This document shows, piece by piece, positions 14,485 through 17,400 of a stretch of 64,000 bases of DNA (its first letter is position 1; each line of letters opens with the position of its first letter). The DNA is from Streptomyces angustmyceticus (lineage in GTDB: Bacteria > Actinomycetota > Actinomycetes > Streptomycetales > Streptomycetaceae). The notes under the pieces are model-generated. The model saw only the letters and a program-made list of their open reading frames with translations. It did not search any database and had not been told where the DNA came from. The DNA is taken from assembly GCF_019933235.1 (NCBI RefSeq), contig NZ_CP082945.1:7601501-7665500 (forward strand). The letters are read 5' to 3'. The translations under genes and the position numbers were made by a program.

Positions 14485-17400
14485 ATGGACAACGAGGACA
14501 AGCTCCGCGACTACCTCAAGCGGGTCACCACCGACCTGCGGCAGACCCGCCGCAGGCTGCAGGAGGTGGAGTCGCGGGAGCACGATCCCATCGCGATCGT
14601 CGCCATGGCCTGCCGCCTCCCGGGAGGAGTGGCCTCTCCGGAGGAACTGTGGCGGCTGGTGGCCGAAGGCACCGACGCCATCGGGCCCATGCCGACCGAC
14701 CGCGGCTGGGACGTGGACAAGCTGTACGACCCGGACCCCGACCGGCCCGGCAGCAGCTACGTCCGCCAGGGCGGCTTCCTCTACGACGCCCCGGAGTTCG
14801 ACGCCGGCTTCTTCGAGATCTCCCCGCGCGAGGCCCTCGCGATGGACCCGCAGCAGCGGCTCCTCCTGGAGACCTCCTGGGAGGTATTCGAGCGCGCGGG
14901 CATCGACCCGACCTCGGTACGCGGCAGCGCGGGCGGCGTCTTCGTCGGATCCAGCAATCAGGGCTACGCGGCTGCCGCCGACGGCAGCACCGCCCCCGAG
15001 GGCGTCGAGGGCCACCTGCTGACCGGCGGCTCGGCCGCCGTGCTCTCCGGACGGCTCGCCTACAGCTTCGGGCTGGAGGGGCCGGCCGTCACCGTCGACA
15101 CCATGTGCTCGTCCTCACTGGTCGCCCTGCACCTCGCCGTCCGGGCACTGCGGCACGGCGAGTGCGAGACGGCGCTCGCCTGCGGAGCGACGGTGATGTC
15201 CTCGGCACGCAACTTCGTGGAGTTCAGCCGGCAGCGGGGGCTCGCGCGAGACGGCCGGTGCAAGCCGTTCGCCGCGGCTGCCGACGGCACGGCCTGGGGC
15301 GAGGGCGTCGGCGTCCTGCTGCTGGAACGCCTGTCGGACGCCCGCCGCAACGGTCACCCGGTACTGGCGGTGATACGCGGCAGCGCCACCAACCAGGACG
15401 GTGCGTCGAACGGTCTGACGGCGCCGAACGGTCCGTCGCAGCAGCGGGTGATCCGTGCGGCGTTGGCGGATGCCGGGTTGTCGGCCGCTGAGGTGGATGT
15501 GGTGGAGGCGCACGGTACGGGGACGTCGTTGGGCGACCCGATCGAGGCGCAGGCGTTGTTGGCGACGTACGGGCAGGGGCGGGCGGCGGACCGGCCGCTG
15601 TGGCTCGGCTCGGTCAAGTCGAACATCGGGCATGCCCAGGCCGCTTCCGGCATCGCCGGCGTGATGAAGATGGTGCAGGCGATCCGCCACGGTGTCCTGC
15701 CCGCGACCCTCCACGTCGACGCGCCCTCCCCGCATGTCGACTGGTCGACGGGGAACGTCCGCCTGCTCACCGACGAGACGGCATGGCCCGAGACCGAAGC
15801 ACCCAGGCGGGCCGGCGTCTCGTCGTTCGGGGGCAGCGGCACCAACGCCCATGTCCTGCTCGAACAGGCGCCGGAGGACGACCCCGCCGACGAACAGTCC
15901 GCGGCGTCCCCCGCACGGGACGCGGCTGGCCTCGCGCTGCCCTGGGTGGTCTCCGGGCGTTCCGCGACGGCCCTGCGCGCGCAGGCAGACCGGCTGGCGT
16001 CGTGGGCGCAGACCGCCGGACAGTCGCCGGCGGACACCGGACATGCGCTGGTGACCTCACGTGCGGCCCTGGAACACCGGGCCGTGGTGGTGGGGTCCGA
16101 CCAGGACGCACTGGTCGCCGGACTGCGCGCCGTGTCGGAGGGCGAGACCCCCGCCGGCGCGGTGGTGGGCGACGCGGGAGCCCTGGAGGGCGACGCCGAT
16201 GTGGTGTTCGTCTTCCCGGGGCAGGGGTCGCAGTGGGTGGGGATGGCGGTGGAGTTGTTGGATTCCTCGCCGGTTTTTGCGGGTCGGTTGGGTGAGTGTG
16301 CGGCGGCGTTGGAGCCGTTCACGGAGTGGTCGTTGGGTGGTGTGTTGCGGGGGGTTGAGGGTGCGCCGGGTCTGGACCGGGTGGATGTGGTTCAGCCGGT
16401 GTTGTGGGCGGTGATGGTGTCGTTGGCGGAGGTGTGGCGGGCTCATGGTGTGGAGCCTGCGGCGGTGGTCGGTCACAGTCAGGGGGAGATTGCCGGCGTG
16501 TGTTGCTGGGGCGTTGACGCTGGAGGACGGCGCCCGGGTGGTGGCGCTGCGGAGCAAGGCGATCCGTGCGTTGTCGGGCCGGGGCGGGATGGTGTCGGTG
16601 GCTCTGTCCTCGTCCGGGGTCGCGGAGCTGGTTGAGCGGTGGGGTGGTCGGGTTTCGGTTGCGGCGGTCAATGGTCCGTCGTCCGTGGTGGTCTCCGGCG
16701 ACGCCGACGCGCTCGATGAGCTGATGGACGTGTGCCGGGAGCGGGGGGTGCGTGCGCGCCGCATTGACGTGGATTACGCCTCGCACTCGGCTCATGTGGA
16801 GTCGATCGAGGGGACGTTGGCGGAGGCCCTGGCGCCGGTCGCGCCCCGTGAGTCGTCCGTGCCGCTGTTTTCGACGGTGACGGGGGAGTGGCTGGACACG
16901 GCGGAGATGGACGGCGGGTACTGGTACGCGAACCTGCGGCGGACCGTGGAGTTCGCGCCCGCCGTCGAAGCCCTCATTGCCGCAGGCCACCGCACATTCG
17001 TGGAGGTCAGTCCGCATCCCGTGCTCACCGTGCCACTCCAGGAGACCGTCGATGTGGCGGGTGCGGATGCCGTGGTGACGGGGACCTTGCGTCGTGATGA
17101 CGGTGGTCTGTCGCGGCTCTACACCTCTCTCGGTGAGCTGTATGTGAACGGCGTGGAGGTGGACTGGTCGCCGGCGTTCGCGGCGCCTCGTCCGCGGCTC
17201 GTGGACCTGCCCACGTACGCCTTCCAGCGTCGGCGTTATTGGCTGGAGTCGGGTCCGTCGTCGGTGGCCGGTGTGGCGGATCCGGTGGAGGCGCGGTTCT
17301 GGGAGTCGGTGGAGCGTGCGGATGTGGAGGGTCTGGCGGCGACGCTGGGGCTGACCGATCCGGGGGCTTTGGGTGAGGTGTTGCCGGCGCTGTCGTCGTG

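What the first reader, a model, noticed from the sequence alone, without database searches (positions are those of the whole stretch)
16477..16640. A 2-bp deletion breaks the module 3 acyltransferase inside an otherwise intact 4960-residue PKS
Compared with the nearly identical module 2 DNA, two bases are missing around 16493-16497, shortly after the AT catalytic Ser. The frame ends at 16635, yet the following 12.8 kb remains fully coding with all motifs intact. If real, the strain makes a truncated protein and probably no product, a very recent loss. If it is a sequencing or assembly error, which I think somewhat more likely because the site sits in a 1.27-kb 99% repeat, the annotation should be repaired.
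Basis: seen in the sequence. Interest (0 to 1): 0.8.

Follow-up and report, generated by a model that had tools for sequence, protein, structure and literature searches.

The report
Frameshift in a gene-converted polyketide synthase
A giant antibiotic-type enzyme gene in a Streptomyces genome lacks two letters inside a stretch that was recently copied over from a neighbouring part of the same gene cluster; this is either an uncorrected sequence error in that near-duplicate (slightly more likely) or a very fresh, ordinary loss-of-function mutation.

Summary
Relative to its paralogue (AT2) the module 3 acyltransferase lacks 2 bp at 16493/16494, five codons after the AT Ser; the ORF stops at 16635 while 12.87 kb more stays coding. 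S. sioyaensis and S. kronopolitis carry the same assembly line with this gene open; over ~52 kb collinear with them this is the only net frame break. New here: the 1.27-kb AT2/AT3 identity comes from a recent AT2->AT3 gene conversion in this lineage, absent from both relatives, and the gap lies inside that tract. The assembly is otherwise clean: 0 frameshifts in 339 conserved genes (373 kb; spiked controls 75% recovered), six identical rRNA operons, other 1.3-kb near-identical repeats without internal frame breaks. That excludes a poor genome, and the identical context in AT2 excludes a context-driven sequencing error. It does not exclude a local consensus error, because the near-duplicate makes this spot nearly invisible to short-read polishing. 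I put an error at ~58% and a real, very recent null allele at ~37%. Either way it is ordinary; raw reads would settle it.

The parts
1722..14438 (+). PKS ORF 1: KSQ loading module (DTAQSSSL), modules 1 and 2, all with methylmalonyl-type AT (GHSQG...YASH)
14485..16635 (+). Truncated PKS ORF 2 as deposited: N-terminal docking domain, module 3 KS, first third of module 3 AT, then 47 out-of-frame residues
16492..16497 (+). Site of the 2-bp deletion in module 3 AT (gap at 16493/16494; three equivalent placements)
16496..29365 (+). Remainder of PKS ORF 2 in the shifted frame: rest of AT3, KR and ACP of module 3; modules 4 (KS-AT-KR-ACP) and 5 (KS-AT-DH-KR-ACP); fully open
16203..17475 (+). Gene-conversion tract in module 3 (recipient), 98-99.3% identical to module 2; left edge marked by base 16202, which keeps the base shared by the relatives' AT3
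11180..12455 (+). Donor AT2 tract in module 2, reading frame intact
29692..41553 (+). PKS ORF 3, two malonyl-type modules, intact
41612..57406 (+). PKS ORF 4, three malonyl-type modules, intact
57456..64000 (+). PKS ORF 5, intact to the window end; outside the window the line goes on to a thioesterase-ended ORF near window coordinate 109674

Best explanation
The window holds the first half of a roughly 20-module type I polyketide assembly line conserved in the Streptomyces sioyaensis / S. kronopolitis group. In this lineage module 2's AT was recently copied over module 3's AT by gene conversion, leaving a 1.27-kb near-duplicate 5 kb apart (shown by comparison). The deposited module 3 copy lacks 2 bp. 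The likeliest single reading (inferred) is a residual consensus error: if the draft dropped two bases in this copy, short reads from the true copy would fit the intact twin better than the damaged copy, so polishing would not restore them. The real gene would then be intact and the ORF should be annotated as one 4960-residue protein.
For: The gap is private to one of two near-identical copies, with 100 identical bases to the left and 598 to the right of it. About 0-31% of gap-spanning reads of 100-150 bp reach the one nearby distinguishing base, and under default BWA-MEM penalties such a read still fits the other copy better. Near-identical repeats make up only about 5% of the ~110-kb cluster, so a random real mutation would land in one rarely. 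All other coding DNA of the cluster compared with the relatives is frame-intact, and downstream codons evolve under the same constraint as upstream ones. Published work reports that repeats that cannot be mapped unambiguously stay uncorrected in long-read plus Illumina assemblies (PMC6325685) and that many single-mutation bacterial pseudogenes are artefacts (PMC11017572).
Against: The assembly looks very good: 0 frameshifts in 339 conserved genes over 373 kb, with 30 of 40 spiked deletions recovered; six rRNA operons identical over about 5 kb; a 1.3-kb 99.3% KS pair and three near-identical 1.3-kb copies elsewhere show no internal frame break. The same context in AT2 is read without a gap, so the error cannot be a systematic one. 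Sequencing platform, strain and reads are unknown to me.
Confidence: 0.58

Rival explanations
1. A real, very recent null mutation: a dinucleotide lost by slippage, or during the repair synthesis of the AT2->AT3 conversion. Translation stops at 16635; module 3's AT, KR and ACP and all of modules 4 and 5 are missing from the protein, so the chain cannot pass beyond module 2 and no final product is made.
For: Low error background and clean repeat controls; a systematic error is excluded by the intact identical context in AT2; the deletion is a simple dinucleotide loss; it lies in a tract that has just undergone recombination.
Against: Everything else in the cluster that was checked is intact and under purifying selection, so the loss would have to be caught almost at once; landing by chance in the near-identical part of the cluster is about a 1-in-20 coincidence unless conversion is mutagenic.
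Confidence: 0.37
2. A reversible switch: the near-identical in-frame AT2 copy 5 kb upstream can rewrite the broken AT3 by gene conversion, so the culture is a mixture of ON and OFF genomes and the assembler recorded the OFF form.
For: Conversion between these two ATs has demonstrably happened in this lineage and the donor frame is intact.
Against: No sign of a dedicated mechanism; conversion between PKS ATs is ordinary concerted evolution (PMC4256081); both relatives are intact; no reads to look for a mixture.
Confidence: 0.03
3. Programmed frameshifting, or translational restart at a start codon after the break (for example 16445 or 16538), gives functional split or full-length protein.
For: A few start codons with weak purine-rich upstream sequence exist in the second frame.
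Against: Relatives and all four other methylmalonyl-type ATs of ORFs 1 and 2 are read without a shift; the AT would be cut right behind its nucleophile; no slippery site is evident.
Confidence: 0.02

Closest known systems
Concerted evolution of AT domains in type I PKS clusters (rapamycin/meridamycin and other families; PMC4256081)
   Same: One AT overwrites another AT of the same substrate class within one assembly line; neutral to the product
   Different: Here one event is dated and directed (AT2->AT3, tract 16203 to about 17475) and coincides with a frame-breaking gap
Spurious pseudogenes from assembly errors in bacterial genomes (PMC11017572; repeats uncorrected after polishing, PMC6325685)
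   Same: A single indel, private to one assembly, in an otherwise intact gene, inside a near-identical repeat
   Different: The rest of this assembly shows no raised frameshift rate in the parts tested
Orthologous PKS of Streptomyces sioyaensis DSM 40032 (L021) and S. kronopolitis CGMCC 4.7323 (L022)
   Same: Collinear, about 89% DNA identity over ~52 kb, same loading module and modules
   Different: Their second PKS ORF is open through this site and their AT2 and AT3 are not recently homogenised over the whole tract

Membership tests
Frameshifted pseudogene (real loss of function) | Frame-breaking change relative to intact orthologues | tested here: met
Frameshifted pseudogene (real loss of function) | Present in the organism's DNA (read support) | not testable with these tools
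   no reads, no second assembly of the strain
Frameshifted pseudogene (real loss of function) | Relaxed selection after the break | tested here: not met
   private dN/dS 0.17-0.20 after versus 0.11-0.21 before; a very young mutation would not show it
Assembly artefact | Located in a near-identical repeat where short reads cannot be placed uniquely | tested here: met
Assembly artefact | Raised frameshift or repeat-error rate elsewhere in the assembly | tested here: not met
AT gene conversion (concerted evolution) | Paralogues more alike than orthologues, with a defined tract edge | tested here: met
   own AT2/AT3 99.3% against 83-88% to the orthologues; in one 100-bp stretch own AT3 is 88% like sioyaensis AT2 but 69% like sioyaensis AT3; edge base 16202 keeps the AT3-type base
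cis-AT type I modular PKS | KS-AT-(DH-ER)-KR-ACP modules, KSQ loading, docking domain, TE at the end | tested here: met
   Pfam on ORFs 1 and 2; motif scan for the rest; TE-like C-terminus read by eye in translation

The most novel reading that the evidence does not exclude
Gene conversion between near-identical ATs is itself mutagenic or reversible, so that a PKS can be switched off by a conversion-linked indel and restored from the twin AT (a recombinational on/off switch of an antibiotic pathway).
Probability: 0.03. Interest if true: 0.6.

Novelty: new member of a known kind. Interest (0 to 1): 0.2.

Why it matters
For genome mining, automatic annotation would split this PKS and mispredict the product or call the cluster dead; a user of this genome should treat ORF 14485-29365 as one synthase pending read checks. 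As a method, a reference copy carrying a false indel inside a near-identical repeat is nearly invisible to short-read polishing. The AT2->AT3 conversion is a clean, dated example of concerted evolution in a PKS, but of a known sort.

Tried and rejected
A codon-statistics frame-switch model was too loose, flagging many normal overlapping genes and missing the known site, so it was dropped. A first homology screen gave three candidates; translations show two are non-coding DNA upstream of true start codons and the third is a poorly conserved stretch; the stricter screen gave none. The first positive control of that screen failed because a paralogue was the best hit; after correction the known site is found with both relatives. 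Strain and product were not identified by literature searches. A context-driven sequencing error was rejected because AT2 has the same context without a gap.

Full report
Observation. Module 2 and module 3 DNA of the PKS align at 98% over 1354 columns, with a 2-bp gap in module 3 at 16493/16494 (same register by multiple alignment; three equivalent placements). The gap falls five codons after the AT Ser (GHSQGE at 16471). The frame closes at 16635 (716 aa) and the other frame stays open to 29365. Pfam finds docking domain, KS and AT positions 1-97 of 319 before the break, and after it two AT matches (one being module 4's), KR, ACP and modules 4-5. The four other methylmalonyl-type ATs of ORFs 1 and 2 (loading module and modules 1, 2 and 4) carry the site without a gap.

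Relatives. A scan of 84,980 species genomes found two close orthologues: Streptomyces sioyaensis DSM 40032 (L021) and S. kronopolitis CGMCC 4.7323 (L022), 91-92% at protein level in the query region. Both carry a collinear line (about 89% DNA identity over ~52 kb), and their second ORF is open through the site. In the 21.4-kb three-way alignment the 2-bp gap is the only indel that is not a multiple of three. Over the full collinear stretch the remaining non-triplet gaps against S. sioyaensis are pairs that compensate each other in linkers (2+52; 20+19), an intergenic gap at an ORF end, or alignment ends.

Gene conversion. In both relatives AT2 and AT3 differ strongly 3' of the YASH motif: 67-72% identity in S. 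kronopolitis and 71-80% in S. sioyaensis across two 100-bp bins. In the window AT3 matches the relatives' AT2 there (88-89% with S. sioyaensis) and not their AT3 (69-81%), and matches its own AT2 at 100%. Base 16202, just outside the tract, keeps the base shared by both relatives' AT3. So AT2 was copied over AT3 in this lineage, and few differences have accumulated since: one substitution between the left edge and the gap, none for the next 598 bp, and a small group near 17092-17212 that may include older remnants. The retained AT3-specific bases also argue that the two copies were told apart by the assembler. Such AT homogenisation is known in PKS clusters (PMC4256081).

Is the deletion real? 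Evidence that the assembly is good: the six rRNA operons are identical across about 5 kb; a homology screen of 339 conserved genes (373 kb in two regions, 3.8-4.4 Mb and 1.0-1.4 Mb) found no frameshift, while the same screen finds the PKS site against both relatives and recovers 30 of 40 spiked 2-bp deletions. A 1.3-kb 99.3% KS pair (window 52631-53924 and 76272-77566) and three near-identical 1.3-kb copies elsewhere have no internal frame-breaking gap. The identical local context in AT2 is read without the gap, which rules out a context-dependent sequencing error.

Evidence that this spot is special: it lies in a near-duplicate with 100 and 598 identical flanking bases. Only 31% of gap-spanning 150-bp reads would reach the nearest distinguishing base, and under default BWA-MEM penalties (my knowledge, not tested on reads) even those fit the other copy with one mismatch better than a copy carrying a false 2-bp deletion. 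A draft error here would therefore survive polishing; published work says that such repeats stay uncorrected (PMC6325685). Near-identical sequence is about 5% of the cluster, so a random real mutation would seldom fall in it. Weighing these by rough reasoning, not by a formal calculation, I put an error at about 58% and a real mutation at about 37%.

Consequence if real. The protein would end inside the module 3 AT; modules 4 and 5 are on the same polypeptide, so chain extension would stop after module 2 (inference from assembly-line logic). Private dN/dS is 0.17-0.20 after and 0.11-0.21 before the break, so the gene was under constraint until very recently.

The product was not identified. 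By motif scan the line has a KSQ loading module with a methylmalonyl-type AT, four such extension modules, then mostly malonyl-type modules, about 20 in all, ending in a thioesterase-like C-terminus.

Noticed in passing
window 52631-53924 and genome C1:7677772-7679066 (window coordinate 76272-77566, outside the window): A second near-identical pair in the same assembly line: 1.3 kb of KS DNA, 99.3% identical, both in frame; probably another recent conversion.
   Followed up: partly
genome C1:7720627-7728231 (window coordinate 119127-126731, outside the window): A CoA-ligase - carrier protein - KS - AT - DH - KR - ACP protein about 10 kb beyond the thioesterase-ended PKS; may be part of the cluster or a separate one.
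   Followed up: no
L021, L022 (S. sioyaensis, S. kronopolitis): The relatives homogenise their own methylmalonyl-type ATs in other patches (S. sioyaensis AT2/AT3 91.5%, AT3/AT4 91.3%; S. kronopolitis AT3/AT4 87.6%), so conversion among these ATs recurs in the group.
   Followed up: partly
genome C1:1112707-1114002, 1114782-1116077, 7866726-7868014: Three near-identical 1.3-kb copies (99.7-100%), probably an insertion sequence; two of them inverted and close together.
   Followed up: no
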